DNA from: Thereva unica
Lineage: Eukaryota > Arthropoda > Insecta > Diptera > Therevidae
NCBI GenBank assembly: GCA_949987705.1
Contig: OX465281.1
Span: forward strand, 141,222,876-141,286,875
Length of the DNA stretch: 64,000 nt
Direction: 5' to 3'
This document shows positions 5,650 through 53,700 of the stretch, in pieces. Positions within the stretch are counted from its first letter, which is position 1, and each line of letters opens with the position of its first letter. The translations under genes and the position numbers were made by a program. A model generated the notes under the pieces. That model worked only from the letters and a program-made list of their open reading frames with translations, did no database searches and was not told the DNA's origin.

Positions 5650-5650
5650 A

Positions 5651-6163
5651 TTTCTTCTTGGACCATCATGCTATTTCATTAGCACTTATTGTAAAAAAGA
5701 TACAATCGGGTTATGGTAACTAAAGTAAGAAATGAAAATGTTTGAGAGTCAGCAGATTACGTACAAGGTTGCATTGAAAGTAACTTGGCTTTTCTACGCA
5801 CGATCCCGAATTCAGCATATTATTGGTCAGAAAGAAAAAAAGACCTATTTGCAATGATTAGACAATATGGTAAGCCAACAGTTTTTTTTTACAATAAGTG
5901 CTAATGAAATAGGATGGCCAAAATTGCTACAATTGTTACATAATTTAAAAAATAATTCTGAGATATCGGTTGAAGATGCAGCAGCATTAAATTTTATAGA
6001 AAAAAGTACACTTATTAATGAAGACGCAGTTACTTGTGCTACATATTTTAATAAGTTGGTTAATGTCCTAATGAAAATACTGCAATCAAAAAGATTTAGT
6101 CCTTTCAAGAAATATAGAATTTTGGATTACTTCAAAAGAATCGAATCAACATCTAAGTTCTAA
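5651..6163 (+). pseudogene. Helitron Rep-region fragment
   Basis: Conceptual translation gives the Helitron-like N-terminal (Rep/HUH-associated) block: a SADYVQG segment, FLRTIPNSAYYW, DLFAMIRQ, FFTISANEIGWP, then a DAVTCA.YFN segment and a final DYFKRIE. These are hallmarks of the conserved 'Helitron helicase-like domain at N-terminus' family. A TGA at 5743-5745 and a one-base expansion of a T-run at 5882-5890 break the frame. Only about 165 residues remain, with no helicase part. It interrupts Penelope unit 2 and is followed by an inverted Penelope end. Confidence 0.82.
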
Positions 6164-6496
6164 GTTTTCACTTCTATCGGCAGTCCCTATAACTGCCAAT
6201 TTTTATTTTCTTTTGTTATCGTCTGAAGACATCTTCAGGATCAAGGATCCAAACAAATTTAGAAAACAGATATTTAACTCATCAGTCAAAATGACTGGTT
6301 TTATATTTTCATTTTCGATACTTAATTGAATAATAGTAGGCGGTCAGATTTATTTTTTTATTCAAAATCAAAAAGTTTTTGATTATAATCGATTTAGCGC
6401 GTGCGCCAGTCATGAGCATGTCGGTGACGCGAACCCATAACATTTTCCCCTATCAAAAAGTGCCCAACGCGGCTAAAGAAGTTTTCACTTCAAGAA
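6164..6496. other. Non-coding gap between Helitron fragment and inverted Penelope end
   Basis: I see no gene here. There is a short perfect inverted repeat around CTGAAGACATCTTCAG (about 6223-6238). The stretch 6475-6496 leads directly into the inverted Penelope sequence. Confidence 0.4.
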
Positions 6497-18396: not shown

Positions 18397-21228
18397 CTAG
18401 TGAGAAGAAGAAGAAGATAGAAAAATAGATGCATGTCTTTTGAATACAGTGGCTGTGCTCATTCTCTGAATGTGATTTGGAAGGTTATTCCAGATTCTAA
18501 GGGTATGCACAAAGAAGGAACGACTACCAATTAGGGAAGTGTGAGCTGGAATCAGGAATTTTAAGGATCTCAAGGATTGCAGAGGAACGAGGAAGTCAGC
18601 AAGGTAGCCGGGGTTTTTGGAATAAAAGACCTTATGCAAGAGGAGTAGAGCCATGAGATCAAGGAATTGAAAGAGGTCACAACCCAGTAGGGAATTTAGA
18701 ACACCCGACACATGATTGGACCTTCTCATATGATAAATGAACCTAATGCAATCATTAAATGCCACTTTAAGACGCTGACGGCAGGAAGAATCAAGGGAAA
18801 TATACACCAACGATCCATAGAGAAAATGAGGAAAAACAAGAGATTTGATGAGTTTAGCACGAATGGATGAAGATAACAGACTGCCATGTAGCTGCAATTT
18901 ACGAAGGGTGCCATAGATTTTAGAGAGCATCAATGAGACATGATTGCAGCAGGAGAGTTTAGAATTGACAACAATACCCAGGTTTTTAGCACATTCAACA
19001 ATTGGGAGAGGAACATTATCAAGTAAAAGAGGCGGGAAACCATCCAGGGACAGCGAGGAACGACTAAGGAAAAGTACTTGCGATTTAATTGGATTTAGTT
19101 TAAGGAAATTACTAGAACTCCACTCATTGATTCGAGACAGGGTGTTATTGAGTTCAGAGACCCAGAGTTCAATCTGATGAGAAGGACACGAGATATATAG
19201 CTGAAGGTCATCAGCATAGAGATGAAAAGAGCAGTGACGAATAACGGAAGGAAGATCATTAATATATAGGGAGAAAAGCAAAGGACCAAGAACCGAACCC
19301 TGAGGCACACCTGCAGGTACTCTAAGGAAAGAGGATGTTACATTATTATGCCGAAGACACTGAAACCTATCGGAAAGAAGAGAAGAGAAAAGACGAACAG
19401 AAGAAGAAGAGAAGTGATACCGTTGATTAAGTTTATGTAGCAGATGCGAGTGAACCACAGAGTCAAATGCTTTGGATAAATCTAGTAGAACTAGTACTGC
19501 CATATCACCTCGATCAAGGGCAGAACGAAGATCAGTCGTCACCTTCAGTATAGCAGTTTCGCAACTATGGGATTTACGGAAACCAGATTGGAGATTTGAA
19601 AGGAAATTATGAGAATCAAGATATCGCACGACTTGAGTAAACACAATTTTCTCAAAGACTTTAGCTAGAAAAGGAAGAATACTTATTGGGCGAAAATCAG
19701 ACAAATCAGCAGGAGAGGGCTTTTTAGGTATGGGAGTCACTATGGCTTTTTTCCAGAGTGAAGGGACTTGGGAGGTTGTCAGGCAAAAATTAAGAATATG
19801 CGTGATAATTTCAACAATTAAAGGGGAGAGAATCTTAAGAAAGCGAGGGGAAATTCCATCATTGCCAACGCTGTTGGACGAAATGGAAAGCAATATTCCA
19901 AGTACTTCAATTGAATCAACACAACGAAAATCAAAACCATCAAAACGTGGAGCATTGGAGAAAGAGGAACAAGGAGAGGAAGACAGGGTGGAATTGGGAG
20001 GGGATTGAAAGAAAGATGCATTGAGTGAGTTTACATCAACATCATAAGAGTTAAGCTCAGAAGAATGGATGCCTAGAGAACGGAGATTAGACCAAAGTTG
20101 CTTAGTGGACAGAGCAGGATCAAGTTTACGTGAGTAAAATTCACGCTTGGCCGATCTGACTTTGCTATTGATTAAGTTGCGAAGATTTTTGTACTCACAA
20201 AGGTAGCTCAGGATCCTGCGGTAGCGTCTATACAGAAACTCACGTTCAACAATAAAGTTGCGGATTTCGTAAGAAAACCAAGGACAAGTTGGAGACTTAC
20301 AACGTCTTCTAGTAACTAAAGGGACACATTGATTAAATAGGGACTGAGTGAAAGAGTTAAACAGATCAACCTTAGTGTCTACGCAGGTTGTATTATAGAT
20401 ATCAGCCCAAGGTATAGACGAAGCAGCTTCAGAAAGCCGAGTAAAATTGATATTATTGAAGTCACGATACGAATAGAAGGTAGGCAGGGAGGAGGAAGAG
20501 TAAAAAGTAAAACGAAGTGAGAGGAAGAGAATATCGTGGTCAAAGAAGCTAGGAGGAGAAATTTGGCTATGTTTTAGCACTGAATTGGTGGAGGTAGCAG
20601 TGAGTACATCAAGGAGCGATGGATTATGGCAGTTTAAAAATGTGGGCAGATAATTTAGAATTCGTAGATCCAATGACCCCAAAAAGTATTTGAGTGTATT
20701 TGAACGTTCATTAGTCTTCAGCAGATCAACATTAAAGTCACCAGTAACAATTATATTATCATAATGACAGGAGAGGCTAGAGATAAAATCAAAGAAGTTA
20801 GCAGCTATATCGGGAGTAAACACATTGGGTGGACAGTAGACACTTACAATAACACATTTGTCATGCGATGATTTTATTTCTACTCCGATAAATTCAAATT
20901 GTGAGCCAATGGTCTGGCCAACTACTTTTGAGGAAAGAGAGGAGGTGACATATATTGCAACACCACCCCCAGTACGACCCAAGCGATCATTCCGATGCAA
21001 GCAAAAAGTAGGCAAGGAAACATAAGAATTTGGGATTTCTGGTTTAAGCCACGTCTCATTGACTACAATAACATGCAATTTAGTGTTATCAAAAAGGTGT
21101 CTTAATTCGTCCATTTTATTCCTCAGGCTTCTTGCATTAAAGGTACATATATTCAGCCCTGAGGAAGAGGAGCAAAGAATATTTAGTAGAATTCCTTCAT
21201 TGTGCACTCTATCAGAGAGATTGGTCAT
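18397..21228 (-). CDS. LINE A ORF2: endonuclease-reverse transcriptase, intact
   Basis: The 943 codons run from ATG (complement of 21226-21228) without interruption. An in-frame GTG lies five codons earlier. An AP-type endonuclease occupies about residues 25-240: an N-terminal NARSL block, NETW with the catalytic Glu near 58, GDFNVD near 163, and a C-terminal SxxxDH near 231. The reverse transcriptase follows, with FRPISILP, LLDLSKAFD (Asp near 583), AGVPQGSVLGP and YADD at about 671-674. A thumb and C-terminal region ends near the stop. The enzyme nicks target DNA and primes cDNA synthesis from the nick. All catalytic landmarks I can place are present, so this ORF could be active, but its partner ORF1 is damaged. 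Confidence 0.93.
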   Translation of the reverse strand: MTNLSDRVHNEGILLNILCSSSSGLNICTFNARSLRNKMDELRHLFDNTKLHVIVVNETWLKPEIPNSYVSLPTFCLHRNDRLGRTGGGVAIYVTSSLSSKVVGQTIGSQFEFIGVEIKSSHDKCVIVSVYCPPNVFTPDIAANFFDFISSLSCHYDNIIVTGDFNVDLLKTNERSNTLKYFLGSLDLRILNYLPTFLNCHNPSLLDVLTATSTNSVLKHSQISPPSFFDHDILFLSLRFTFYSSSSLPTFYSYRDFNNINFTRLSEAASSIPWADIYNTTCVDTKVDLFNSFTQSLFNQCVPLVTRRRCKSPTCPWFSYEIRNFIVEREFLYRRYRRILSYLCEYKNLRNLINSKVRSAKREFYSRKLDPALSTKQLWSNLRSLGIHSSELNSYDVDVNSLNASFFQSPPNSTLSSSPCSSFSNAPRFDGFDFRCVDSIEVLGILLSISSNSVGNDGISPRFLKILSPLIVEIITHILNFCLTTSQVPSLWKKAIVTPIPKKPSPADLSDFRPISILPFLAKVFEKIVFTQVVRYLDSHNFLSNLQSGFRKSHSCETAILKVTTDLRSALDRGDMAVLVLLDLSKAFDSVVHSHLLHKLNQRYHFSSSSVRLFSSLLSDRFQCLRHNNVTSSFLRVPAGVPQGSVLGPLLFSLYINDLPSVIRHCSFHLYADDLQLYISCPSHQIELWVSELNNTLSRINEWSSSNFLKLNPIKSQVLFLSRSSLSLDGFPPLLLDNVPLPIVECAKNLGIVVNSKLSCCNHVSLMLSKIYGTLRKLQLHGSLLSSSIRAKLIKSLVFPHFLYGSLVYISLDSSCRQRLKVAFNDCIRFIYHMRRSNHVSGVLNSLLGCDLFQFLDLMALLLLHKVFYSKNPGYLADFLVPLQSLRSLKFLIPAHTSLIGSRSFFVHTLRIWNNLPNHIQRMSTATVFKRHASIFLSSSSSH

Positions 21229-21559
21229 TGAAAGATGAGCCACAGAGCCACAGAAGCCAAAATACCCATGCAGAAAGAAAATAAAGGAAAGGTAAAAAAT
21301 TAGAGAGAAGGAAGAAAAATAGAAGAAGAAGACAAGGCGAAATTCTTAAAGCTAACATAAAAAAAAGGAAACATAAGATAAAATATATATGAAATTAACA
21401 TAAAACAAAACTATAATAAACAAAGGTGGAGCAAAAACTATTAAATATAAATAAAATAATAACAATAAAAAGAAAAAGAAATAACAAATAATAAACAAAA
21501 GAAAAGAAATATTTCATCGCATTGATGCTCCCTGGTATCAGTAGGCTGCTCCGAAGTTT
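21229..21559 (-). other. Spacer between LINE A ORF2 and ORF1
   Basis: A-rich on the plus strand, with no ORF of note. It separates the two LINE ORFs by about 330 bp, longer than the short overlap or gap common in LINEs, and may reflect internal rearrangement. Confidence 0.45.
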
Positions 21560-26266: not shown

Positions 26267-26700
26267 TCTGTTGCCAATGAAGGTTTCCCAATTTGATGGA
26301 TGCTTCTTGAGCCAGGCTAATACGATTTTGGAATCTGTCTATGCATACATATCGTTTATATTTAGCTGAACGTCTTTCTTCACTTGAACCATTAATTTTG
26401 CTAACAATGTTGCTCCGCACAATTCTAATTTCGGCAACGAGATTGTCTTTATAGGTGCTACCTTGGTCTTAGCTGATATCAGATGAATGTTGACCTCGCC
26501 ATTAGTTTGTTGAACTCTCACGTAGACCGCTGCTGCGTAGGCCTTCATAGATGCATCGCAAAATCCATGGAGATCTATCCTGACTGCTGTAGGTCCTGTT
26601 TGAATCCGGCGTGGAATTTGGATACGTTCCAGGGCTAAAAGACTTGCTCGATAACCTGTCCAGTGGGCTCCAGATTTGTTGGAATCTCCTCATCCCATTG
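26267..26700 (-). pseudogene. BEL/Pao 1 RNase H region, frameshifted with stops
   Basis: The RNase H-like sequence (DASMKAYAAAVYVR, then LPKLELCGA) is readable only by switching frames near 26640 and 26545. A TAG at 26339-26341 stands where a Trp is expected in the family. These lesions separate the RT part from the integrase part. Confidence 0.82.
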
Positions 26701-29019
26701 TATTCCTGCTAGCCATAGTGCCTGTATGAGGATCTTGGCTTGTATTTTCACCGGTGACAGCCATCCAATTGGATCAAAAAGCTTGGCGACGTCTGACAAA
26801 ACCGTGCGCTTGGTCCATGTTGAAGGTTTGGTTTCCACTTGAAATTTGTACCATAAGCAGTCGGTAGAAGGGTTCCAGAATATTCCTAGCGTCTTGATGG
26901 CCTCGGACTTGATGGGTACTGTTGGGTTTATCTCTCGATGCTCTATCGGAATATGTTGCAAAACACTTTCACTGGTGGATGCACATTTTCTCAGCTGTAA
27001 GCCGCCGCTTTCTAGTAGACAGTGAATTTGGTGTTGTTTGATTCTCGCTTCTTCAGGACTGTCAGCTCCGGAAATTAAGTCGTCGACATAGAATTCAGTG
27101 AGCACAGCTTCCGCTCCAATAGGGTAGTTGGCGTACTCGTCCTTTGCTAATTGATGCATAGTCCGAATCGCCAGATACGGGGCGCTTTTGGTTCCAAATG
27201 TCACCGTGCTCAGCCTGTAATCTCGAAAAGGTTGTTCTGGTGCCTCTCGCCAAATTATCCGTTGGTAGTTGGTGTCCTCTGGATGCATCCGGATTTGACG
27301 ATACATTTTGTGGATATCAGCCGTAAGGGCTACTTTGTACCTTCTCCATCGCATCAAAATAGCATATAACGTTTCTTGGATAGTGGGTCCTTTAAGAAGT
27401 ATGTCATTCAGGGATCTTCCATTACTGGTCCGTCGCGACGCGTCAAAAACTACGCGGACCTTTGTACTCGTGCTGCTTAACTTCAGTACTGCATGGTGAG
27501 GTAAATACGCGCAATTGAAGTACACATCATCGTTTTCGTCGCGCTGTATGAAGGTGGTCTCGGTGTTATTGACGGGTTCCATATGATTAAGCTCTAAGTA
27601 TTCTTTCAAACACTTCTGGTATTCTTCTTTCAGGAAAGGATCTTGAGTAAACCGTTTCTCCAATTGAATCATTCTAACGATGGCCATATTCCTGGATGCT
27701 CCTAGTTTCACTGGATGGTTTTCGAAGGGTAGGCGTACTTGATATCTCCCATCATCACCTCGTTTATAAGTCTCGGTGAAATGTTGTTCACAACGTTCTT
27801 CCTCCTTTGTCAACTGATTGGTAGCAGGCACTTCCTCCAATTCCCAAAATTGTTTTAAGTCGTAGGCCAGGTTTAAATTGACGTGAAAGGTTTTCATATT
27901 CGAAGTCTCACAAACGCGAGCAGATGTTTGACCTGAAAGAATCCATCCAAATATAGTTCGCTGACCAGCTGGCGTCCCAAGCTTTCCTTTCCGTAGTCCA
28001 TCCGCGATGATTAGGGGATAAACGTCAGCACCTAATAAGATATCCACTGTTCCTGGTCGATCGAAGGTGGGATCGGCTAGCGCTAGACCCTCTAAGTGTT
28101 TCCAATTCTCTTTCCTTATTCGTTGATTGGGCAAGACATTAGTGACCTTTGTCACAACCAAGGCCTCCACTTGAATACTATTACCTTCCAGGTCTCTTGG
28201 AGTTAGCATCAGTCTTGTCCGTGAGTTAATTTTGTTGCTAGGAATGCTATCCAATCCAGAGACATTTACATCTACCTTCTCTCGAGTTAAGCCCAGAGAT
28301 TGCACCATACGCTCAGTTGCAAATGAGGCTTGTGACCCCGGATCGATGAGAGCTCGACACACTTCCCTGCGTCCGTTTGGTGATGAAATAGTAACTAAGG
28401 CTGTCGCTAAGAGAACCTGCTCTGATTCGAACGGCTGATTGATCAAGAAGGATTGAGTTGTAGAAGGCTCGGTACCACTATAGGTGGACATGTTGGCTTG
28501 TGTCACGAAGGCATGTTTAGACGATTGTTCTGATTCAATATTTCTATCCTTAGTTTCGGCTGTACTCTGCTCCTTATGCAACGTGGTATGATGAGACTTT
28601 TTGCAGATGAAGCACTTTGATTTTCTTGGGCACTTAGCGGCGAGGTGACCTGTTCCTAAACAATTCAGGCAAAGTCCTTTGGATCTAATCAGCTCTAATT
28701 TTGTTTGATGATCATAGCCTAAGTATTTTGGACACTGTCGCAGGACATGACTTTCATGACAAATCAGGCATGAAGGTCCAGTCATGACGTGGAAGATTTG
28801 AGGCTTCTGCCACGATCGTTCCGGCTGGCTTGCAGGTTTACATTCTGTGAGGGGAGGTCTCCTTTCGGGTGTGATGGCCTCCAAGGTCCGGAAACGGGCC
28901 TCCAAAAATGTCCTGAGTTCATCCCATGGCGGAAGTTCTACCTTTGATCCCAGCGATTGTTCCCATAACGCTGATGTTTCGTATGGCAAGCGTTGCCCAA
29001 TAGAATGTCTCAACATCAA
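26635..29019 (-). pseudogene. BEL/Pao 1 gag C-terminus, protease and reverse transcriptase
   Basis: 794 codons are open. Order: gag C-terminus, then three Cys/His clusters at about 79-150 (CLIC, CLNCLGTGHLAAKC, CFICKKSHH). An aspartic protease with an IDPGSQASF active-site segment follows near 226. The Pao-type reverse transcriptase has VVFDASRR, TADIHKMYRQI and YVDD near 643. A region leading into RNase H ends at a frameshift. Gag packages RNA, the protease matures the polyprotein and RT copies it. The N-terminal gag part is in another frame (break near 29020). Confidence 0.92.
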
Positions 29020-29182
29020 GATTTTGAAGGGCAGCGAGGCTTTCGGAAGTTTTGTCTAGCAGGCCTTTGATAGCATTGGAAGATTCAAGCTTCACCACGG
29101 GTTGTCCAAACAAAACGTCTGGTTGAGCCTTCACCAAAATTCTTTTGTTTTCGTAACGTGCTACTAAGGTGTTCCACGCGCG
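28919..29182 (-). pseudogene. BEL/Pao 1 gag, segment 3' of the errantivirus insertion
   Basis: This is the continuation of the gag reading frame that stops at 35351 on the other side of the nested provirus. It starts in an RAWNTLVARYENKR segment, typical of the BEL/Pao gag DUF1759 domain. It remains in frame until about 29020, where a frameshift separates it from the downstream polyprotein. Confidence 0.82.
29179..29182 (+). other. Target-site duplication CGCG (left) of errantivirus
   Basis: CGCG occurs at 29179-29182 and at 35347-35350. Joining the flanks with one copy gives an uninterrupted BEL/Pao gag reading frame, which confirms a 4-bp duplication of alternating pyrimidine-purine sequence as expected for gypsy-type errantiviruses. 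Confidence 0.88.
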
Positions 29183-29484
29183 AAATATACTTTTCGGACT
29201 CGGATAATTAATAAAAAAAAACAATTTAGACCGAATATTAATTTATTACAGTTGTTATCTATTCAAAAGCTTCTATAAAACTGAATTTATTTCTTAAATC
29301 TATTTTACATTAAACCTAGCTTAAAAATAATTTCCCATGCTCGGATTCTGGGTATTCCTAGTCAGCGTCTACAACGCCGGATGCGTGTTGCAATTTAACC
29401 CCTTTACCTGGATCGTGGAAACTTGGGGTTGACGACATCTTATGTGGTGGAACGTGGAGATGGGGCTAAATGGCATCGGTAATT
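29183..29484 (-). repeat. Errantivirus 3' LTR
   Basis: 302 bp, matching 35046-35346 with one A-run length difference and one C/T change visible. The near identity implies recent insertion or recent conversion. A purine-rich tract (complement of 29485-29497) directly precedes it, as expected for second-strand priming. Confidence 0.92.
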
Positions 29485-29880
29485 CCTCCCCCCTTGGTGT
29501 GAAGCGTGGGCCATAAGAATCTTGATGCTGGTGGTCCAGGCGAAATGTTGTCCGTGAGTTCAACTGTGATGGCAGGTTTTCGGCAAATGTAGATGATGAT
29601 TATAATCATTGCAGATCCTAGGATGACTATGAATCCGCTGGTGTAGGTGTATTTAATCTTCGTTTGGCTTTGCAGGTTTTCCAGGTCAGCTTTGTTTTGT
29701 ATGTTGTACTCCTTTAATTTTTGTAGATTGAGCATCTCGACCGTGGATTCTGGGTACAGGTTTCCGTGCAGCATTGGGAATATATGGATTTCATCCCAGA
29801 AGACGTTGCTGTCATCTCTGTAGATTATGTCATTTATGGTAACTTCGCAGTCTTCGTAGTGGAGCAGGATAGTGCCTTGA
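29466..29880 (-). pseudogene. Errantivirus env, C-terminal stalk and membrane anchor
   Basis: The C-terminal part of env is in a different frame from the main env ORF, so there is a frameshift near 29880. The piece has a coiled, polar stalk followed by a hydrophobic membrane span rich in isoleucine and a short basic-then-acidic cytoplasmic tail that runs into the LTR. In errantiviruses this segment anchors the envelope glycoprotein. With the break, this copy could not make an anchored envelope protein. Confidence 0.82.
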
Positions 29881-31027
29881 AGTGTTGAGTGGTTTTTCCA
29901 CAGGTTGATACGATTGATGTTTTCGGGATGTTCATGACAAGGACATAGTTCGGTTCTGGTTGCAGGATTGTTTCAATTTTTCCAACTTCTTTAACTGTAC
30001 AGTTCGCTGCTTCGCCATTAAGTAAGGGTGCTATGCATTTTGATTGTTCTATGATCTCTTGATTCCTGCTTTCTTGGCAATAAAAGATACCTTCTACCCT
30101 AGGACAAACTTCATCGAAATATTGGATTCTTCTCTTATCAAGGATAACATATGGTTTAGTGGATATTATTTTGGTTTCATTAATCGGAAGTGGAAGGATG
30201 TGGAAAAGGGAGTATTCTTCTCGGGATAGCATTGGAATGCGGACATTGAATATTATATTTGAGTTGTTGTGGTATGCTTGTAGGCTTAATAATTCATATA
30301 TATGATCATTGGATTTAATCTCTATTGACTGATTTATTAAAATTTTCTCAATTAATTCGAGTTCGTTAGGATTTAAAATAAATTTGGATATGATATTGAG
30401 TCTGGCTAGTATGATGGCTTCAACTACGTTAGTGATATGGTTAGTAAGCAAGTCAATGTTGTAATTTATTTGAGAGAGATATTGCATGTGTGAAAGGGAA
30501 ATTTCGTTATTACGGATCTTGTTTGCGATTTGATCTTGATAGCGCTTTAAGTAGTTTGTTATTGTATCCTGTTCTTTGTTAATGTGGTTAGTAATGTTTT
30601 CGAATCTGCTTATCATTACTTTGTTAATTTGGGTCTGTTGATTTACTTCGTTTTTAATTTTTGTTTGTTCTAAGTTAAGTTTTTCTATCTCCTCGTTTAA
30701 GGATTGTGCATCATTTGCGTCCATGTTTCTCGTAATAAATTTGATTGCAGTTCCTAATCCATTTATTAGGCCTCTTTTAACTCTTTGTTTGGGGTTCAGT
30801 GTTTCAAGTTTGTTTTCTAGCTCCCTAAGTTTTAGTTTGGTCACTGTCATTGAGTCCTTTAGTTCGTCTATAGTGTCTAGGTTTTTAATGGAATTTGCGA
30901 TTTGTGTTAAGCTGGCCTTATAGGGATCTAATCTTACTATATGTACTAGATTATAATAGTTAGTAATTGTGCGTGCTGTTCCTAATTTTAAAGGGAGTAA
31001 CCCTTTACTATTGCCTAAGACGTGCAT
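29834..31027 (-). pseudogene. Errantivirus envelope glycoprotein, main part
   Basis: 397 codons from an ATG at 31027. A basic RVKR cleavage-type site lies at residues 82-85 and is followed by a Gly-rich hydrophobic segment typical of the fusion peptide of errantivirus and baculovirus F-type envelope proteins. The remainder is a heptad-like ectodomain rich in Asn/Ile with several cysteines near the C-terminus. Known errantivirus env is made from a spliced mRNA; a strong acceptor lies just upstream (31059). A frameshift near 29880 removes the membrane anchor from this frame, so the gene is broken. Confidence 0.88.
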
Positions 31028-31050
31028 TTCTAATCTTTGCCCGAATGTTA

Positions 31051-31085
31051 GTGATAATCTGAAAAGAAAAATAAAGTAAGGTTTA
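31051..31085 (-). promoter_or_regulatory. Predicted env splice acceptor
   Basis: On the minus strand a pyrimidine-rich run (ttatttttcttttcag) ends in CAG at 31061-31059, 32 nt upstream of the env ATG. Env expression from a spliced subgenomic RNA is established for errantiviruses. This site has survived the replacement of pol. Confidence 0.6.
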
Positions 31086-31163
31086 TTTTATCCTACGTAC
31101 TTAGTCTATGGGATTCTTTATTATGCCTTTTGTAGAGTAGGCTAAAAAATAATAACTTAATTG

Positions 31164-32741
31164 TTAAGATAGTAATCTTCCCTGGTATATCTCTAAAATC
31201 ATTTTGAGACGAAAATAGTTCATATGTTGCTGTGAGAAAGTTATCTCACGATCTCTAGTAATGTACTCGGCAAACATGCAGCTAAAAACGCCACAATCAT
31301 TGCCATTCATCTGTTTTGGAACGTTTTTAACGCTTTCTTTAACGAAATCGGACGTGTCGAAACTCTCATTTCGCTTATCTAATGATTCTTCCTTAATATA
31401 ATTATCGAGGGCTTCCAATACTTTTGGGTTCGGTATGCCTCTTGAATCGTAATATTTAATATATTTATCTCTTAAGTGAATGATTGCCATGCACCAATGT
31501 ACATCGCCAATATGGACAGGTACAGGGAGAATGTCATATGAGAATATATCAACTTTACGAGTCCATCGACTCACAGAACTATAACCAAAATTCATAAGCT
31601 TTGTAGCAAAGAACGTGTTCATTGCGTAAACACGTGGAAGACCTGAGTTACGTTGTTCTGAACGTTCGGTTAAGAGATCCATGTAGAAGTTGATAACCTT
31701 ATCGTTCAACCAGTTCCCGTCATTGAGACTTAAAATGTCTTTTCGCGTTATTTGCATATTAAATTTTCTAATTAGTACTTCGTCTCCGGATCCTCCATGC
31801 GTAGCTTTCTTAATCAAAGCACGATGGTCTGAGGTCAACTCCGGGAATTCGTCTGATTTCCTAGCGTTTTCTTCCTTTTTATCGTTTTCCTTATTCTCAT
31901 CACCGTCTAAATTGGTGATTTGCGGAATTTTCTGTTTAAATTTTTGTTTCCCAAAACGCGGCGTTAGTTTATTTCTTTTACCTTCTTTCCTAAATATAAC
32001 TTCATGTATTTCCCTTTGCTCAGGATCCTTCCTTGATTCATATAACTTATCTATTTTATTGTTACTTACATTTTCTAATTGGTTTTGAACAGAAGGATAT
32101 GGCTCTGACTGATATTCGTTCAGTTTTATTGAGTATTCATGTTCTCGTTCCCTTTCCATTTCACGTTCTCTCTGTTGTGTAGCTTCTAAATTAACATCTA
32201 TTAATATTTTAGGCTTGTACATATTTTCACGTTCCTTTTTGAGCCGCTCAAATTCTTGAGTAGGGTTGTCATATTCTCTACTAAATATTCTATTCCCTAA
32301 TTCTTCTAATTCTTCCTGCACTTCGTCCCTATCTTTTGCATCTTGATCTGCTTCCCGGCCCCTATCTGTCAACCTTCGTTGTAATTCTCGTCCCTTATAA
32401 TATTTTGGATCATCACGCTCATCATCATAGTCTTCGAGAAATTCTTTTAAACGTTTGGCTTCCTTTTCCCTTTCCTCTTCTCTCATAAGCTCTTTTTCCC
32501 GTTCCTTTTCATATTCTTTTGCTTTCCTTCTTTCCCTGATATCCCAATTTCGTAGTCTCTCCTGATAAGCCGTTTCTTTATCTCTAGCCTTTTTGTCGGC
32601 CTTTTTTGTTTCTGGCTGTTCGTTATACTCGAAACTGACGTGGTTTAATTCAATATGCTCGGAAGGCAAACAACGTTCTACTTTCAGAGGTTGTTCAACA
32701 TAGAGTATTTGCTCTTGGTCGGATTCGTTGCTGATTTCCAT
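31164..32741 (-). CDS. Viral pol linker / RBM25-like / SENP-Ulp1 SUMO protease fusion
   Basis: 525 uninterrupted codons. Residues 1 to about 44 continue the errantivirus protease-RT linker in frame. About 47-178 match the ER-rich central region of the splicing factor RBM25 (AAYQERL-type start, KEAKRLKEFLEDYDD and RDDPKYYKG at 96-117). Residues 179-297 are charged and unassigned. Residues 298-525 form a full SENP1/Ulp1-type cysteine protease with RKDILSL, NWLND, RWTRKVDIF, His415, Asp432, Gln477 and Cys483 (NGNDCG), plus the family C-terminus ITFSQQHM...EIYQGRLL. SENPs cleave SUMO precursors and remove SUMO from targets, usually in the nucleus. No intron is present, so capture through spliced mRNA is likely. 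It occupies the place of RT-RNase H-integrase. The N-terminal RRM and C-terminal PWI domains of RBM25 are missing. Confidence 0.93.
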   Translation of the reverse strand: MEISNESDQEQILYVEQPLKVERCLPSEHIELNHVSFEYNEQPETKKADKKARDKETAYQERLRNWDIRERRKAKEYEKEREKELMREEEREKEAKRLKEFLEDYDDERDDPKYYKGRELQRRLTDRGREADQDAKDRDEVQEELEELGNRIFSREYDNPTQEFERLKKERENMYKPKILIDVNLEATQQREREMEREREHEYSIKLNEYQSEPYPSVQNQLENVSNNKIDKLYESRKDPEQREIHEVIFRKEGKRNKLTPRFGKQKFKQKIPQITNLDGDENKENDKKEENARKSDEFPELTSDHRALIKKATHGGSGDEVLIRKFNMQITRKDILSLNDGNWLNDKVINFYMDLLTERSEQRNSGLPRVYAMNTFFATKLMNFGYSSVSRWTRKVDIFSYDILPVPVHIGDVHWCMAIIHLRDKYIKYYDSRGIPNPKVLEALDNYIKEESLDKRNESFDTSDFVKESVKNVPKQMNGNDCGVFSCMFAEYITRDREITFSQQHMNYFRLKMILEIYQGRLLS

Positions 32742-33124
32742 TGTACTATGCCACTCAATAGCCTTATATAGTCCTTCAGAGATAATCAGTTGGGGTTTTA
32801 GGATTGTGTTCCTAAGGAAAATTTCTCCGTTTCTTACGTCAACAGGAAGTTTAACTATTGCTTTAGAGTGGGGTGGTATAATGTGTTTGCCGGAACTGAA
32901 ATTAGGTTTCTACTTTAAGGGGATTTTTGCATTTCTGGTTATGAGGGCCTTTTCTACTAGGTCAATTTTACCGCCTAGCTTGGTAAGATCGCCAAGTCCT
33001 AACAGACCGTCGAAGTACCCATGAAATTTGAAAATATAAAATTGTATTTCGCCGGAGTCATTAAATTCTGTAAATATTGGAAGGGTGACTGTTTTATCAA
33101 TTTGGTATTTGCCTAATACAGTGT
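32742..33124 (-). pseudogene. Errantivirus protease C-terminus and linker, broken
   Basis: The sequence between the protease fragment and the fusion ORF is readable as errantivirus polyprotein in the same frame as the fusion. An in-frame TAG lies near 32910, in place of a usual Tyr. Because the fusion's Met at 32741 is simply the next ATG in this pol frame, the captured gene was probably expressed as part of Gag-Pol originally. Confidence 0.75.
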
Positions 33125-33607
33125 TTATTGTTTTGGGTTCGCATCAGTAGGGAAAACAAATTCTGGGTTGATGAACGACGATGAAGCTCCTGTATCTATC
33201 AAGAACTTCAGCGGCCGTCCGAAAGGGCTTGCTATGTTGATGTAAGCAAGTGTTGTACCATGCGTATTGACGTCTAGGTAACCTATTGGTCCCTCAAGGC
33301 ATCTATAGGATTGTGTCTCGGGACTCAATGGGTGCTCTTCGTAATATTGATCTAAGTTCTGCTGGTAAGATCCCTTTTCAAGTGGAAGGTAATTCGTGTC
33401 TTTTATGTCTTCGTTTATATTGTGAATTTCCTCAGCAAAGTATTTTGGGAATCCGCTGGAACGAGAAGGTTTATACGAGAAGGAATTATTCTGTGGGTCC
33501 CTGGATTGGTTGAAAGCGGTTCGTTGTCTTAAGTGAGAATTCCCAGAACTAGTATCCATCGGTTCTGGTGGAGGTAACCTAGGTGGGTTTGTTCTTCGAT
33601 CAAACAC
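33125..33607 (-). pseudogene. Errantivirus protease fragment
   Basis: 161 codons directly follow the gag amber codon in the same frame. A Pro/Asn/Gln-rich N-terminal half precedes an aspartic protease core with the DTGASSSF active-site segment near residue 138. A single-base loss near 33130 makes the frame stop at 33125. The frame opens with GTG, not ATG, consistent with expression as an extension of gag. In an intact virus the protease would process Gag and Gag-Pol. Confidence 0.85.
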
Positions 33608-33610
33608 GTT

Positions 33611-34660
33611 CTAATTAAAATTAGGGTTTCTGAAATTGTTATGGTTCTGATTGTTTCTATAGTTATTAAAATTCTGATTCGGATTCTTGAAAAAGGGCCT
33701 CGAAATTTGATTGTTAAATCCTTGTGAGGTATTAAATTGTTTATGAGGAATACGAGGTGAAAATTTAAAGTTGGTTAGTTGTAAATTTGCAGAATTGTTA
33801 TGCTTTTGATTCTTATTAAATTTAGGATAGTCTGAAAGTGGGTTTGATTTCATATAGGAAATATTTTGCTCTTTAATGCAATAGGATAGAGCTAAGGGTA
33901 GAGAATCCGGTCTCATCGCTCGGATCATCGACCCCAAGGGTTCTCTAATCCCCGTTAGAAAAGCATTCAAACACATTTCGGCGTATAGTTCTTTTTTCGC
34001 TTTAATTACGGAATTTTCTGTCTCGTGAATTAATATATTGTTATTAAGGGTAGCCTGTATTTCAACTACCTCGCTGTAGAATGTTTCTATATTTTTATTA
34101 TTTTGCCTAATCGAATGTAGGTCTCTAATTAGTGATGTTTCTGTTCGTTTGTCGGAGTAGTGTAACGTTAGATTGTTCTTTATGTCCTCCCAAACAAGAG
34201 CAGTGCCGTATAAATTCAAAACTTCGTTTGCTTCCCCTTCGATTTTATTTCGTATTGCACGCATTAAAATTAGGGAATAGGGTGTACCGTCAATTGCTTT
34301 TAAATATTTTAAAATTTCTTCTACATTGTTGAAGAATTCGTGAAGTAGTCTAGGATTTCCATCGAATCGTGGAAGATCCTTGATCACATCAGGAATCCTT
34401 AACGAATTAAAAACATCTGTGGGCGAAATTGATGCACTCGCGGAAGGGGCAAATTGTGCAGGGTTAATATTATTAGTAGCCATTTCACTAATAGACTCGA
34501 TTTCACTTTCCAAATTTATATTGGGAACACTAATATTTAAATTAATACTTAAATCTTCTTCACTATTTATATTTTCCGGAATAGAGCTTAAACTTTTAAA
34601 TAGCCTATTAATTTTTTTTGGATAGGGCCAAAGGGAAGGGTTCTTTGCAAATTTTTTCAT
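33611..34660 (-). CDS. Errantivirus gag
   Basis: 349 codons from ATG at 34660. The central part (LPRFDGNPRLLHEFFNNVEEI near residue 95, then SLIRDLHSIRQ and the FLTGIREPLGSMIRAMRP block near 230-250) is the capsid-like region of gypsy-type errantivirus Gag. The C-terminal third is a basic, Asn/Gln/Phe-rich tail lacking CCHC knuckles, which is normal in this group. The protein would package genomic RNA. It ends in TAG (33611-33613), and the following protease codons remain in the same frame. Most errantiviruses use a frameshift here, so this amber codon is either a readthrough site or a mutation. Confidence 0.9.
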   Translation of the reverse strand: MKKFAKNPSLWPYPKKINRLFKSLSSIPENINSEEDLSINLNISVPNINLESEIESISEMATNNINPAQFAPSASASISPTDVFNSLRIPDVIKDLPRFDGNPRLLHEFFNNVEEILKYLKAIDGTPYSLILMRAIRNKIEGEANEVLNLYGTALVWEDIKNNLTLHYSDKRTETSLIRDLHSIRQNNKNIETFYSEVVEIQATLNNNILIHETENSVIKAKKELYAEMCLNAFLTGIREPLGSMIRAMRPDSLPLALSYCIKEQNISYMKSNPLSDYPKFNKNQKHNNSANLQLTNFKFSPRIPHKQFNTSQGFNNQISRPFFKNPNQNFNNYRNNQNHNNFRNPNFN

Positions 34661-35045
34661 ATAGGGAAATAATGATCAAAGAGAAAATAATTCAATATTC
34701 GACTTACATATGTCCAATAATTATTATGTATTTCATCGTCCTGAGTCCTTTTTCGATAGGTGTCTAGAGTTGAAACTCTCCGGTCCAACGGTGTGTTGCT
34801 GCAACTGGTTTTCCGCCAGAATATGAGATGCTGATGAGGAAACCACTCAAAGCACTTCAAAAACACTCCCGAATATCTCTAATCTTTACTATTATCTCGA
34901 AAAAAGTTTCGGTAATCCGCCGTATTATTTTCAAAACAATATAATTGTATTTTCACTTTCGGTAAACCGCCGTTAGTTAAAAAATTATTACAGATTATGT
35001 AGATATTGATGGATAGGACCGCACACCTATCCTACCGACTGCGCC
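34661..35045 (-). other. Errantivirus leader with primer binding site
   Basis: 385 bp between the 5' LTR and gag. The minus-strand sequence TGGCGCAGTCGGTAGGAT directly follows (and overlaps by one base) the LTR at about 35027-35046. This resembles the tRNA-Ser-type primer sites of insect errantiviruses. A direct repeat of 'tttcggtaa.ccgccg' occurs around 34908 and 34957. No gene is seen. Confidence 0.7.
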
Positions 35046-35346
35046 AAATATACTTTTCGGACTCGGATAATTAATAAAAAAAACAATTTAGACCGAATAT
35101 TAATTTATTACAGTTGTTATCTATTCAAAAGCTTCTATAAAACTGAATTTATTTCTTAAATCTATTTTATATTAAACCTAGCTTAAAAATAATTTCCCAT
35201 GCTCGGATTCTGGGTATTCCTAGTCAGCGTCTACAACGCCGGATGCGTGTTGCAATTTAACCCCTTTACCTGGATCGTGGAAACTTGGGGTTGACGACAT
35301 CTTATGTGGTGGAACGTGGAGATGGGGCTAAATGGCATCGGTAATT
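35046..35346 (-). repeat. Errantivirus 5' LTR
   Basis: 301 bp, near-identical partner of 29183-29484. On the minus strand it starts AATTACCGATGCC and ends GTATATTT. It would carry the promoter of the provirus. Confidence 0.92.
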
Positions 35347-35350
35347 CGCG

Positions 35351-35923
35351 TTCGTAATTCGCGGCCGTAATGGGGGTATTATTTAGAAGATTTTTAGCTT
35401 CTCCAGACAGGTGTGCTTTCAAATACTGCATTTTATGCACAGGCGATACATGGTCGTTGTTGTGGACTAACGATAAAAACATGTCATAGAATGGGGTCCA
35501 CGATAGATCTCCAGAAAAAGTTGGGAGCGATATCTTTGGGAGCCTAATATCATCATTTCTCGAATGGACATGGACAACCGTCGCTGTGTTATCTTCATCT
35601 ATTTTAACCGTACTTTCTTTGCTAGGGTGATCACGTTCGGATTCCGTTATAATTTTCGTATGCGCGTCGATGTAAAATTCTTCAAAGTTGGAATATACTT
35701 CGTTTACGAAATAACCTTTGGTTTCCTGATCCTCGTCGGTAGCTGCCAAAACAATCTCTCGATGGCGTTTTTTGAACTCTCTCCAATAATCTTCTAGTTT
35801 GTCCAAACGAGTTTTATAATATAAACTTCGCGCGCGTCGTTCTGCGCCATCTTTACCGTAATTACGCATAAAAGTTTCCGTGTCAGTTATAACTAAATTT
35901 TGCAATTTAATTAAGTCCTCCAT
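35351..35923 (-). pseudogene. BEL/Pao 1 gag N-terminal part
   Basis: Starts with ATG at 35923. About 190 codons show the DUF1759-type BEL/Pao gag: a charged helical N-terminus, then LPKISLPTFSGDLSWTPFYD near residue 127 and AHLSGEAKNLL near 170. The frame is interrupted by the errantivirus at its CGCG target and resumes at 29182. Confidence 0.88.
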
Positions 35924-36698: not shown

Positions 36699-37722
36699 TG
36701 AAAAGATTTCTCACAAAAAAAGAAAAGAATTTAGCCGTTCCTTTCGATTTCAATCCGTTTATTATCACTCAATTCAATCAATTTCACAAATATTCGATTT
36801 CAAAAATTCATAATCCGCTAATCTGTTCAATCTTTAAATCCTAGCATTTAACAAATGTTCTACCGACTAATTCAAATTTAATTCACTTTAAGTTTTAACA
36901 CCAAATTACTCAAATTAGACAATAAATTCAAATCTATTTCACTTCAAGTTCTAACAATTAATAACTCTCTGTTCAAATTCACCACCTTCACCTTGACGCT
37001 GGTTTGATTCCAATTTTAAATTTTGCCACTTGATTTCTACCATTTAGATTTCCACCGTCACGACCGAAATTTTCTCTCGAATCCGAATCTTACAACCGGT
37101 GTCCCTTTTTAAGTACTGGGACTTAGAAATTTCTAGTCGCTTTTTCAGTTATTTTCCCAGTTTTAGTTTTCCGTTTTACCTTTTGTTTTTCCCTCTTAAT
37201 ATACAGAGGTATATATATTTTTCTCATGTTTTTCTCTCTCTATCGTTCCGTTCTGTCTCGGTCTCCACAAGTGGTTCGTGTCTCCGGTAACGACGTTTTA
37301 GTGCGTTAATACGCGATCAAACTCAAGTGTCAAAGTCACTGTGGGAAAGTTTGTTTTCATTGTGAAGTGTTGTTATTTTTAAGTTGTAATTACAATATGT
37401 GTTTAAATGTTATTCTAAATGTACTAGGTAAGTAAATAATGTTTCGTGTTGTCTATCCAAATATTATATAAAATAACTATCCTTTCCTACAATTAAGTAA
37501 ATTAATATAAGATCTAATCTTACTTTCTTAACCTATACTGTCTCTAAATTCATTATTGAAAATTCTAATTATGTTTTTCTTTTTAGCTATATCTATATTA
37601 GATGTCTCTTCCTGGGTGGAACGTCTTCCGGTTGCCATTAGATAAGTAGTTTCTTGTTGATATGTATTTTCTTGGTGCTTTGTTTTGATTTCTTTTTAGG
37701 CGCTGTGACCAAGTATCCAACA
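36699..37722 (-). repeat. BEL/Pao 1, 5' LTR
   Basis: 1,024 bp with TG...CA ends. It contains the extra 38-bp 'ttttctcatgtttttctc'-type segment missing from the other LTR. A CTATG duplication follows at 37723-37727. Confidence 0.9.
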
Positions 37723-38090
37723 CTATGTATTATGTATTATGTACTATTTATTTTGGACTATATACTACCTACTATATACTATCAACTATGTTTGTACTAT
37801 GCACAAGGTATAATGTACTATGTATAATCTGCTATGTACTAGGTATTATGTACTTTGCATTACGGACTATGTGCTATTTACTATGAATTATGTACTATGA
37901 ACTATGTACTATGTACTTTATACTATGTATTATGTACTATTTATTTTGGACTATATACTACCTACTATATACTGTCAACTATGTTTTATGTGCTATGTAC
38001 TATGCACAAGGTATTATGTACTATGTATAATCTTCTAGGTACTAGGTATTATGTACTTTATTGCGGATTATGTGCTATTTACTATGAGCA
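37723..38090 (+). repeat. TATGTAC-type minisatellite, right fragment
   Basis: Continuation of the 22652-23323 array across the BEL/Pao insertion, with the 'gcattacggactatgtgct' anchor at 37857 and a diverged one near 38060. Confidence 0.88.
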
Positions 38091-38450
38091 CAATTTCCAA
38101 AATTAGTCCGCCTTTTTGAATTTTAAAAATTTAACCACAAATTTGTCATTTGGATCCCTCAAAACCCGCCGACACTAATTTTCAGCACAATCGGTGCACA
38201 ATTGCCAAAACTAGTCCGCCATTTAGAATTTTAAAATTTTAACCACAAATTTGTCATTGGGTTCCTCAAAATCCCCTGACTCTAATTTTCAGTACAATCG
38301 GAACACAATTGCCAAAACTAGTCCGCCATTTTGAATTTTAAAATTTTAACCTCAAATTTGTCATTTAGATCCCTCAAAACCCCCCGACACTAATTTTCAG
38401 CACAATCGGAACACAATTGCCAAAACTAGTCCCCCATTTTGAATTTTTCT
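38089..38450 (+). repeat. ~105-bp tandem repeat, about 3.4 copies
   Basis: The words 'actagtccgcc' (or attagtccgcc) and 'ttaaccacaaatttgtcatt' recur near 38100, 38210, 38317 and 38425. Copies are 80-90% alike by eye. The wording ('ccattttgaatttt', 'ccctcaaaaccc') recalls the internal repeats of the Helitron-like elements in this window. Confidence 0.8.
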
Positions 38451-50703: not shown

Positions 50704-50767
50704 TGGTGCCGAAACCCGGGATCCTTATATCGTAACGTTTAATTAATTGGGACAAATCGAATTAATA

Positions 50768-53700
50768 ATGGAAATATCGACACGTGCAGTTTACCGTGGT
50801 CAAATTACGAAACTCGTGAACTCTATAGAATCCGCTTTGCAAAGGTGTTCTGTTAACGCTGCAAGTGATATGGACTATTTAATGAATTGTGATGAAGAAC
50901 TTAATGTGCTTCTAGATCGTTTAAGTGCAGCCTACGAAAGTTTAGGAAAAGCGAACGCCGCCGCGAAAGCTGTTATCAAGGCTGAGGATTTTGATAAAGA
51001 AGCGGAAACTGTAGCGGATTATGATGACAAGGCAATTACTGCTATGTCTCTTTTAAAACAACGTTTAAAGAATATAAAATATTTTCAAGAAAGAATAAGT
51101 CCCACCGCCATATCAACTGCCACACCATTATCCCCTGTAGCGCCGAAATCCAGTGTCTTACATTTACAGAAATTGCAACTAAGGAAATTTTCAGGTAATT
51201 TCAAAGACTGGATTCCATTCTGGGAACAATTTCGCTCACTCGTGCACGAAAATTGTGCCCTATCTGCCATTGATAAGTTTAATTACTTGGAGACCGCATT
51301 GATCGGAAAAGCTGCGGAAACCATTGCCGGCTTCACCCCTTCAGACGCCAGTTATAACAGTGCCATAGAATTGTTAAAGGAGGAGTATGGAAATACGGAG
51401 AAGATTATTGATTATACCATGCAGCAATTATTAGGTGTGCAATGCATTTCGAGTAGGTCCGACACGAATTCTTTAAGACAACTCTACAACACCGTAAGAT
51501 CTGCCACCAGATCATTAGAGCATCTTGGGGTGCCGACTTCCACGTATTTCGTTATGTTAAAAGGAGTTTTGTTGCGTACTCTTCCGAAGGAACTCAGGGT
51601 TGACTTTCACAGGTATTGTGAAGATCATTTGAAATCGGAAGAAAATATGGCAGGTGACATGGATGATGGCGGTGATTCTGTGAAAAATGACGGTGATTCT
51701 GTGAAAACCGTTTCCTCTTCTTCTGCCCAAATTAACGACAAACAAGTGAATTTCCTACTTAAGTTTTTGAAGAGAGAAGTGGAATCGTTGGAAAAGGCGC
51801 TTGATGTCAAAACCCGTACCAGTAACGGCAGCGAGATGCGTCATAAATCACAGAGAACGGCTATTGGATTATATGTAGGAACAGATGAGAGCTGTTGTTT
51901 TATTTGCAAATCTTGCAACCATGGAACGAAAGAGTGTGATAGTGCCAAGACTATTATGGAAAAAAAATCAATATTGCAGAAAGATGGTCGCTGCTTCAAA
52001 TGTTGTAAACGTGGGCACAGTGCAAAATTTTGTAAAGTTCGCATAGTGTGTAGGAAATGTAACGGTCGTCATGCTAGTTGTGTTTGTGATCCTTCATTTA
52101 AAGGATCCGCTATGAAGTTTAAGAATCCAGTTATAGATAATGTTATTAAAAATAAATTTGAGGAAAATTCAACTGGACAAAGTGCAAGTGGGCAAAATGC
52201 TGTCAATTTATATTCTAGTGCTTCAACAACGAACGATGTTTTATTGCAGACAGCGTGTGTGTATGCTACTAAAGGAAGGCATGACAATAATCGTTCATGT
52301 TTTACTCGTGTCATTATCGATGGAGGTAGTCAAATCTCCTTTATAAAAGGGAGTGTAGCAAGAGCTCTTGACTTACCAGTTATACGAACGAAAAAATTGA
52401 GTGTATTGCCTTTCGGAAGTGAGACACAAAGTGCAGCTAAGGAATATAATTGTGTGCAATTTACTCTTCATAGCCAATGGAGTGATGATGCTATAACTAT
52501 TGATGCAGTTGAAGTTCCGGAAATCTGTGTCGACGTCCTTTCCTCACCGTGCGATATACAGTTGTGTGAACTAATTTGTGATTTAAATTTCGCGGACAAA
52601 AACGTAAACAGTGTGACAGCTCCTGGTATTAGTGTTTTGATCGGTGCTGATAGATATTGGTCAGTTGTCACGGGCAAATTTAGAAGAATATCCGCGGATT
52701 TAACAGCCGTTAAGACTATTTTTGGATGGACCCTTCATGGTCCGGTCGCAACTGGTGATGTGCATAAAAGGAATTGTGAAGAAATGGTGTTGAGTGTGTG
52801 CGCTTGCACAGATGTTGAACGATTCTGGCAACTGGAGTCCATTGGAATTTTACCAGAATCAGTGGCAGAAAATGGAAGAGATATCAGTGAATGTGTTTAT
52901 CTATCAAACGATCGTTTTATGGCACAGATTCCGTGGAAGATTTCGCAGTTAAAGTACCTAAAAGACAATTATAACGTGGCCCTTGTTCGATTTAAGACTT
53001 TGGTGCGAAATTTAATTAAAACCGGAAAGTTGTTCGATTATGATACCGCGATACACGAAATGATTTCTAATAACTTTGCTGAAAGGGCTATTGATGGCGG
53101 CAGCCCACAACGTACATTTTATTTACCGCATAGAGGTGTTTATCGTGAAGATAAGGAAACTACAAAATTACGTATAGTGTTTGATGCTTCGTCACATGCC
53201 TTTGACGCGTTATCATTAAATGACTGCATAGACGTTGGTGGTAATTTCTTACCTGAAATTTTGGCCGTGCTTTTGAATTTTCGTTGTGGAAAGATTGGCG
53301 TTACAGCCGACATTGAAAAGGCATTTCTGCAAATTTTTCTGCAGGATAACGATCGGGATAGCCATCGCTTCTTATGGTTTAAAGATAAATTGAATTCTGA
53401 AGATGTGTCTCTCTCGGATATTGTGCCTTATAGGATGACCAGAGTTACATTTGGAGTTGTGTGCAGTCCGGCTTTATTAGGAGTTGCGATTAAAAAGGTG
53501 TTAGAAATGGCGGGCAAGTTTTTTCCCGACACATACGAAAAATTAAAAGGTAATTTTTATATGGATGATTTAGTGGTTAGCTGTGATTGCATAAATGAAG
53601 CGAAAAGACTATGTAGCGAAACCAACACATTGATGAAGAGAGTGAGTATGAACCTTCGGAAATGGCGTTCTAATTCTTCTGAGATTCAGAAATTTATGGA

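What the first reader, a model, noticed from the sequence alone, without database searches (positions are those of the whole stretch)
31164..32741. Errantivirus in which RT-RNase H-integrase is replaced by a captured RBM25-SENP fusion
Seen: within a provirus bounded by near-identical LTRs and a CGCG duplication, the interval between protease and env holds one 525-codon ORF. It starts in the viral pol linker, passes into an RBM25-like ER-rich segment (about 47-178) and ends as a complete SENP/Ulp1 domain (298-525). Known: acutely transforming vertebrate retroviruses often replace pol or env with spliced host cDNA and depend on a helper. Inference: this is the insect errantivirus counterpart. 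I am not aware of a described errantivirus carrying a SUMO protease.
Basis: partly seen in the sequence, partly recalled or inferred. Interest (0 to 1): 0.96.

Follow-up and report, generated by a model that had tools for sequence, protein, structure and literature searches.

The report
Fly retrovirus with built-in SUMO protease
This fly genome carries a multicopy family of insect retroviruses whose Pol protein ends in a domain predicted to remove SUMO tags and likely acquired from a host gene, and the copy in this window has in addition swapped its reverse transcriptase and most of its integrase for a spliced piece of a second host gene, RBM25, so it would need intact relatives to move.

Summary
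In detail: a provirus with 99.3% identical LTRs and a CGCG duplication has, between protease and env, a 525-codon ORF: viral linker, RBM25 piece, SENP1-type domain.

RBM25 is a true capture: it differs from the host's own RBM25 gene at 16 of 462 nt and lacks both parental introns. It replaces RT, RNase H and most of integrase; one search found it in no other viral copy.

SENP is not part of that capture. It is the C-terminal domain of the virus's own Pol: 14 of 70 matches lie near-complete in stop-free frames of 1239-1617 codons; L009 and L010 read RT-RNase H-integrase-SENP, with open gag and env. SENP dN/dS is 0.10-0.13 between subfamilies. The domain lacks a host SENP1 intron and groups with that gene, so it is likely an older capture of spliced host mRNA. 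Two related lineages read lack it.

Most likely role (inferred): a Pol-borne deSUMOylase against SUMO-dependent silencing; activity untested. Text searches found no errantivirus with a SUMO protease.

The parts
29179..29182 (.). target-site duplication CGCG (left)
29183..29484 (-). 3' LTR of the provirus
   Evidence: 99.3% identical to the other LTR
29485..29495 (-). polypurine tract next to the 3' LTR
   Evidence: sequence read; role recalled
29466..29774 (-). env C-terminal piece with a hydrophobic stretch, in another frame
29834..31027 (-). env-F ORF (397 aa), cut off before the hydrophobic C-terminal piece by a frame break
   Evidence: (Baculo_F 1.5e-15, Gypsy 4.6e-14)
31059..31059 (-). 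last base of an env splice-acceptor-like site
31164..31853 (-). SENP1-type domain, residues 297-525 and stop; the C-terminal domain of Pol in relatives
   Evidence: relatives
31854..32144 (-). remnant of the integrase C-terminus plus the integrase-SENP connector (residues ~200-296); lacks about 81 nt that relatives L024 and L033 have
32135..32607 (-). captured spliced RBM25 mRNA (residues ~46-202), both parental introns absent
32608..32741 (-). viral Pol linker after the protease, start of the 525-codon ORF
   Evidence: same frame as the later part of the protease reading; homologous to L024
32742..33607 (-). gag C-terminal reading and protease (DTGASSSF), with a frame break near 33.13 kb and a stop at 32910-32912
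   Evidence: (Asp_protease_2 0.00094, below its curated cut-off)
33611..34660 (-). gag ORF (349 aa), ended early by a stop
34703..34709 (-). splice-donor-like site upstream of gag
35028..35045 (-). primer-binding site next to the 5' LTR
   Evidence: sequence read; assignment as PBS recalled
35046..35346 (-). 5' LTR of the provirus
35347..35350 (.). target-site duplication CGCG (right)

Best explanation
This is a defective member of a multicopy errantivirus family whose Pol ends in a SENP1-type domain, a predicted SUMO protease likely acquired from the host's own SENP1 mRNA, and in this copy RT, RNase H and most of integrase have been replaced by a spliced piece of host RBM25 mRNA, likely by template switching during reverse transcription. 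Shown: domain order, intron loss in both host-derived pieces, open Pol-SENP frames in other copies, conservation of SENP codons, defects of this copy. Inferred: that SENP1 mRNA of this fly lineage was joined in frame to the end of integrase once (perhaps twice) and then passed among viral lineages by recombination; that the enzyme travels in particles as part of Pol; that it strips SUMO from host factors needed for piRNA-guided silencing, giving the provirus a window of expression; that the window copy was made and inserted with proteins of an intact relative, and that its RBM25-SENP ORF is a by-product without a role of its own.
For: Pol-SENP: 70 C48 matches in the 910 Mb assembly (host genes and fragments included), 14 of them near-complete domains in stop-free frames of 1239-1617 codons; L009 has gag 478, pol 1440 and env 546 codons open between LTRs 98.8% identical; pieces of Pol give RVT_1, RNase H, integrase and C48 in L009, L010 and L012, the aspartic protease in L009 only. 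Among 26 loci (25 fetched plus window) IN is found in 24 and SENP in 26; the two without IN are the host gene L011 and the window copy. Selection: SENP dN/dS 0.10-0.13 in six comparisons between subfamilies; W, H, D, Q, C motifs in 24 of 24 open frames; model of the window domain pLDDT 90.8, TM 0.93 to SENP1. Origin: 21 viral SENPs form one clade (99/96), sister to host SENP1 L011 (99/95); host SENP1 has a 102-nt GT-AG intron in the domain that the viral frames lack. RBM25. Before/after: 46 of 150 integrase matches lie in frames of 1195-1240 codons; L038 ends Pol after integrase with no SENP. Silencing link: Panx SUMOylation needed for piRNA-guided repression (PMC13195609, passages).
Against: No enzyme assay, expression data or reads. 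Nothing here shows that SENP acts on silencing factors; that step rests on Drosophila literature. Only 8 of the 24 fetched viral loci keep a Pol-SENP frame of 1239 codons or more; the rest are broken or partial. Two of 23 viral SENPs (L012, L034) fall outside the host+virus clade, though one viral clade is not rejected (p-AU 0.199). By frame length SENP-less relatives are more numerous among the integrase matches (46 against 9 of 150), so the domain is not required. Two close pairs give high SENP dN/dS (L009-L023 0.85, L012-L034 0.49; few changes), and comparisons with L012 are saturated. Junction identity between host and virus is weak: 7 of 10 nt at the 3' side, little at the 5' side.
Confidence: 0.7

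Rival explanations
1. The SENP domain works as an integration-targeting module on integrase, as chromodomains do in chromoviruses (recalled): it holds SUMO-modified chromatin and steers insertion, with or without cutting.
For: It is joined directly to the integrase C-terminus in one frame.
Against: The catalytic motifs are kept in 24 of 24 open frames, which pure binding would not need. Insertion sites were not compared, and cleavage sites between integrase and SENP were not looked for.
Confidence: 0.2
2. The SENP domain is a second maturation protease of the virus, like the SENP-fold proteases of adenoviruses and African swine fever virus (recalled).
For: Location in the polyprotein; same fold clan as those viral proteases (recalled).
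Against: L009 still has its aspartic protease; the window domain is SENP1-like in sequence and predicted fold, and viral SENPs of the main clade stay close to host SENP1 (pN 0.09-0.11).
Confidence: 0.12
3. One reading: a fused RBM25-SENP host transcript was captured in one event and replaced RT-RNase H-integrase.
For: RBM25 is spliced host cDNA.
Against: SENP is in Pol of many copies and RBM25 was found in no other viral copy; integrase C-terminal sequence lies between RBM25 and SENP in the ORF.
Confidence: 0.02
4. The window structure is an assembly join of virus and host sequence.
For: No reads could be examined; the copy has several frame breaks.
Against: Both host introns are missing at their exact splice sites, both junctions keep the frame, LTRs and target duplication fit, and the RBM25 piece differs from the host gene at 16 of 462 nt.
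Confidence: 0.04
5. The RBM25-SENP ORF of the window copy is itself functional, RBM25 directing the protease to splicing bodies (localisation recalled).
For: The ORF is the only long frame of this copy without a break; RBM25 pN 0.026 against pS 0.072; favourable start context by recalled consensus.
Against: Frames upstream are broken; no second copy; P of no disablement by chance about 0.17; 21 upstream ATGs; the RBM25 piece departs at 2 of 25 columns invariant in 42 other RBM25 sequences.
Confidence: 0.1

Closest known systems
Errantiviruses / insect endogenous retroviruses (gypsy, ZAM, springer groups)
   Same: LTRs, gag, pol, env with Baculo_F domain; donor- and acceptor-like sites laid out as the spliced env of PMC12992720 section 7
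   Different: Pol carries an extra C-terminal SENP domain; the window copy lacks RT, RNase H and most of integrase
Acutely transforming vertebrate retroviruses (recalled) and crocodilian ERVs with captured KIT-ligand or nectin3 mRNA (PMC4299795, passages)
   Same: spliced host mRNA inside a provirus, usually at the cost of viral genes
   Different: insect virus; SENP was added to Pol without loss of RT, RNase H or integrase (as the KIT-ligand was added without loss of an ERV domain) and became part of Pol in many copies
SENP1/Ulp1 SUMO proteases (C48)
   Same: sequence, predicted fold, catalytic motifs
   Different: encoded by a retrovirus as part of Pol
TART-A carrying part of nxf2 (PMC7785250, abstract)
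   Same: fly retroelement that captured host sequence, proposed to act against the piRNA pathway
   Different: TART-A is proposed to act through piRNAs; here an enzyme domain is encoded
DNA transposons with Ulp1 genes (plant Mutator-like and others; recalled, papers seen only in the listing)
   Same: mobile element with an Ulp1-type gene
   Different: different class of element; a separate origin is assumed, not tested

Membership tests
Errantivirus | LTR pair with short target duplication | tested here: met
Errantivirus | env of the baculovirus F type | tested here: met
   window; L009
Errantivirus | pol with RT, RNase H and integrase | tested here: not met
   not in the window copy (only the integrase C-terminal end remains); met in relatives L009, L010, L012. 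The window copy is filed as a defective derivative.
Errantivirus | spliced env transcript | tested here: inconclusive
   donor-like and acceptor-like sites found; no RNA
Errantivirus | place in the gypsy/gypsy clade by Pol tree | not tested
   no Pol tree with named errantiviruses was built
SENP/Ulp1 C48 peptidase | C48 domain above curated cut-off | tested here: met
   157.6 bits against cut-off 20.7
SENP/Ulp1 C48 peptidase | His-Asp-Cys triad, Trp and Gln of the active site (residue roles recalled) | tested here: met
   W344 H415 D432 Q477 C483; motifs in 24 of 24 open frames
SENP/Ulp1 C48 peptidase | cleavage of SUMO | not testable with these tools
   needs protein
Transducing (oncogene-type) retrovirus | host sequence derived from spliced mRNA | tested here: met
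   RBM25: two introns missing
Transducing (oncogene-type) retrovirus | loss of replication genes, with relatives that keep them in the same genome | tested here: met
   that a relative acted as helper is not shown
Transducing (oncogene-type) retrovirus | effect of the captured gene on the host cell | not testable with these tools
   no functional data

The most novel reading that the evidence does not exclude
Insect retroviruses have acquired a host deSUMOylase as a permanent domain of Pol and deliver it with the particle to take apart SUMO-dependent piRNA silencing: the first virion-borne retroviral counter-defence enzyme against this pathway, passed among viral lineages by recombination.
Probability: 0.4. 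Interest if true: 0.95.

Novelty: new variant of a known kind. Interest (0 to 1): 0.88.

Why it matters
No retrovirus with a SUMO protease domain in Pol turned up in my text searches (listings only, openly licensed papers only), and no relative of the SENP part in the viral contig scans. SUMO is needed for piRNA-guided transcriptional silencing in fly ovarian cells, a main defence against these viruses, so a viral deSUMOylase would make a direct enzymatic arms race testable. SENP-bearing and SENP-less related lineages live in the same genome and form a natural before/after comparison. The window copy separately shows oncogene-style transduction of spliced host mRNA in an insect retrovirus, with the parental gene and its introns in the same assembly.

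Tried and rejected
Rejected: single capture of a RBM25-SENP fusion (integrase remnant lies between the two). Rejected: L014 and L015 as host SENP1 (they align to SENP1 at 24-31%, apart from one 11-residue piece, and look like other SENP-type genes). Rejected: C1:156756197 (frame of 1594 codons without SENP) as another capture; its frame runs on into env (L039). No use: relatives in viral contigs; a full-length relative of the fusion in the protein database (only the best 120 of 633 and of 416 hits were listed, and the length limit of that search excludes a 1440-codon Pol, so it says nothing on Pol-SENP elsewhere). The SENP tree, made before the genome search answered, put the window domain next to Cyclorrhapha, with host SENP1, replaces it. 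The neutral simulation assumes that all the simulated divergence came after capture; the dN/dS replaces it. Intron positions guessed from truncated database proteins were superseded. My first motif count (11 of 24) used patterns that were too narrow; one search repeats it (24 of 24). SENP rows left out of counts for stops or short coverage: L024 and L031.

Full report
What is in the window. On the minus strand at 29183-35346 lies a provirus with 302/301-base LTRs that differ by one mismatch and one 1-base indel, flanked by CGCG and nested in a BEL/Pao element. It has gag (349 aa, ended early by a stop; homologous gags run on past that point), a protease with a frame break, env of the baculovirus-F type with a frame break before its hydrophobic C-terminal piece, and between protease and env the 525-codon ORF of the finding. 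The pol frame has a stop at 32910-32912, upstream of the ORF's ATG. The ORF's start lies in the same frame as the later part of the protease.

The ORF in four parts. (1) Residues 1 to about 45: viral linker, homologous to relative L024. (2) About 46-202: RBM25; the best database protein (unnamed) is 85% identical, Anopheles sinensis 81%. (3) About 200-275: the C-terminal end of integrase, seen by comparison with L001, L024 and L033; about 81 nt present in L024 and L033 are missing here. (4) 297-525: SENP1 domain, PDB E 1e-75, model pLDDT 90.8 with TM-score 0.93 to human SENP1.

RBM25 is a captured spliced mRNA. A protein search of the host assembly found four places: the window and three exons of one gene at C1:99967395-99970915 (15 candidates scored). 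The exons align to the ORF at 96, 99 and 94% DNA identity, and the host introns (about 3 kb and about 60 nt, GT...AG) are missing exactly (L036, L037). Compared in frame there are 16 differences in 462 nt, pN 0.026 and pS 0.072. The piece departs from 2 of 25 columns that are invariant in 42 other RBM25 sequences. It takes the place of L024 positions ~3647-6199, where by the L009 layout RT, RNase H and most of integrase lie; none of the three is found in the window copy by translated search. At the 3' junction host and virus share 7 of 10 nt around the switch point (window against host 9, against L024 8); the 5' junction shows little. Both keep the frame. This fits template switching onto a co-packaged host mRNA, described for retroviral gene capture in PMC4997597 (passages).

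SENP belongs to the virus. The C48 family has 70 matches in the assembly, host genes and fragments included; 14 hold a near-complete domain in a stop-free frame of 1239-1617 codons. I examined 25 fetched loci around such matches; one, L011, is taken as the host SENP1 gene: it is the best match to a fly SENP1 (75%), has an intron and no viral part. Of the 26 loci with the window, 18 have recognisable gag, 21 RT, 21 RNase H, 24 integrase, 26 SENP and 23 env. Of the 24 fetched viral loci, 8 keep a Pol-SENP frame of 1239 codons or more (L009, L010, L012, L013, L016, L019, L029, L030). In 10 of the 25 loci an LTR pair or part of one was detected, 92.9-100% identical. L009 has open gag, pol (1440 codons) and env, and L010 likewise with pol of 1475 codons. 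Pfam on separate pieces of Pol gives RVT_1, RNase H, integrase and Peptidase_C48 in that order in L009, L010 and L012; the aspartic protease is recognised in L009 only.

Constraint. In six comparisons between subfamilies the SENP domain shows dN/dS 0.10-0.13 (e.g. L009-L030 pN 0.102, pS 0.575); comparisons with L012 are saturated. Close pairs range from 0.05 to 0.85 on few changes. Active-site motifs are present in 24 of 24 open frames, host and window included; L024 and L031 were dropped for stops or coverage. In an alignment with 104 other SENPs the window domain keeps all 38 invariant columns and departs at 4 of 43 nearly invariant ones.

Origin and spread. In a tree of 53 rows, 21 viral SENPs form a clade (99/96) that is sister to host L011 (99/95) among the insect sequences at hand. 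L012 and L034 fall outside, but one viral clade is not rejected (p-AU 0.199). The host gene has a 102-nt GT-AG intron within the domain and the viral frames that cover the place read straight through it, so spliced SENP1 mRNA of this fly lineage is the likely source. Host-virus synonymous divergence is pS 0.76-0.83 for eight copies and 0.89 for L012 and L034, so the capture is old. SENP pS between subfamilies is lower than that of gag, RT or integrase of the same copies (L009-L030: 0.575 against 0.812, 0.941 and 0.867), and L023 and L018 look recombinant; I infer that the domain was passed between lineages, though constraint on synonymous sites is not excluded.

Before and after. A search with integrase gave 150 scored matches out of 10,099 candidates; 46 of 150 lie in frames of 1195-1240 codons and 10 in frames of 1400 or more. 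By position, nine of those ten are SENP-bearing; the tenth runs on into env (L039). L038, from a frame of 1230 codons, ends Pol about 35 residues after the motif where relatives go on into SENP. Only L038 and L039 were read, so the share of SENP-less copies is an estimate from frame lengths.

How it likely works (inferred). As part of Pol the domain would be packaged and reach the next cell with integrase. Fly piRNA-guided transcriptional silencing needs SUMO on Panoramix, and endogenous deSUMOylases can remove a SUMO fused to it (PMC13195609, passages). A viral SENP1 could therefore loosen silencing of incoming or newly inserted proviruses. Rivals are an integration-targeting module and a second maturation protease. 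For the window copy I infer a one-off defective genome made with an intact relative's proteins; whether its RBM25-SENP ORF is ever translated is unknown.

What is known. Named features of insect ERVs are from PMC12992720 (passages and section 7), in whose main text the terms SUMO, host gene and helper have 0 occurrences. Gene capture by crocodilian ERVs: PMC4299795 (passages). A fly retroelement with captured host sequence: PMC7785250 (abstract). The text search 'errantivirus' with 'sumo protease' found 0 papers; the library holds only openly licensed papers.

Noticed in passing
26635-29178 and 35351-35923: BEL/Pao element split by the provirus insertion (DUF1759, RVT_1, Peptidase_A17).
   Followed up: partly
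50747-56170: A BEL/Pao-like ORF of 1807 codons without a stop (assignment from the sequence read, no family search).
   Followed up: no
795-2924, 3880-5491: Penelope-like reverse transcriptase ORF (709 aa) and pieces of a very similar second copy (assignment recalled).
   Followed up: no
18397-21243: Non-LTR retrotransposon ORF of 948 aa with endonuclease- and RT-like parts (assignment recalled).
   Followed up: no
37708-38447: Short-period repeats (14/21 nt) followed by about 107-nt tandem repeats.
   Followed up: no
L023, L018: Copies that look recombinant: L023 RNase H is far from L009 (pS 0.80) while its SENP is close (0.02); L018 has a window-type integrase-SENP connector before an L009-type SENP.
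   Followed up: partly
L028 (C280): Two SENP matches about 1.5 kb apart in one locus, suggesting a local duplication in a provirus or an assembly effect.
   Followed up: no
L014, L015: Host genes of other SENP-type families; L015 has a split domain like SENP6/7 and L014 is distant from SENP1 (family names recalled).
   Followed up: partly
P0074, P0090, P0096: SENP1-like proteins of 437-598 aa in several Drosophila species, perhaps retrocopies of Ulp1; context not examined.
   Followed up: no
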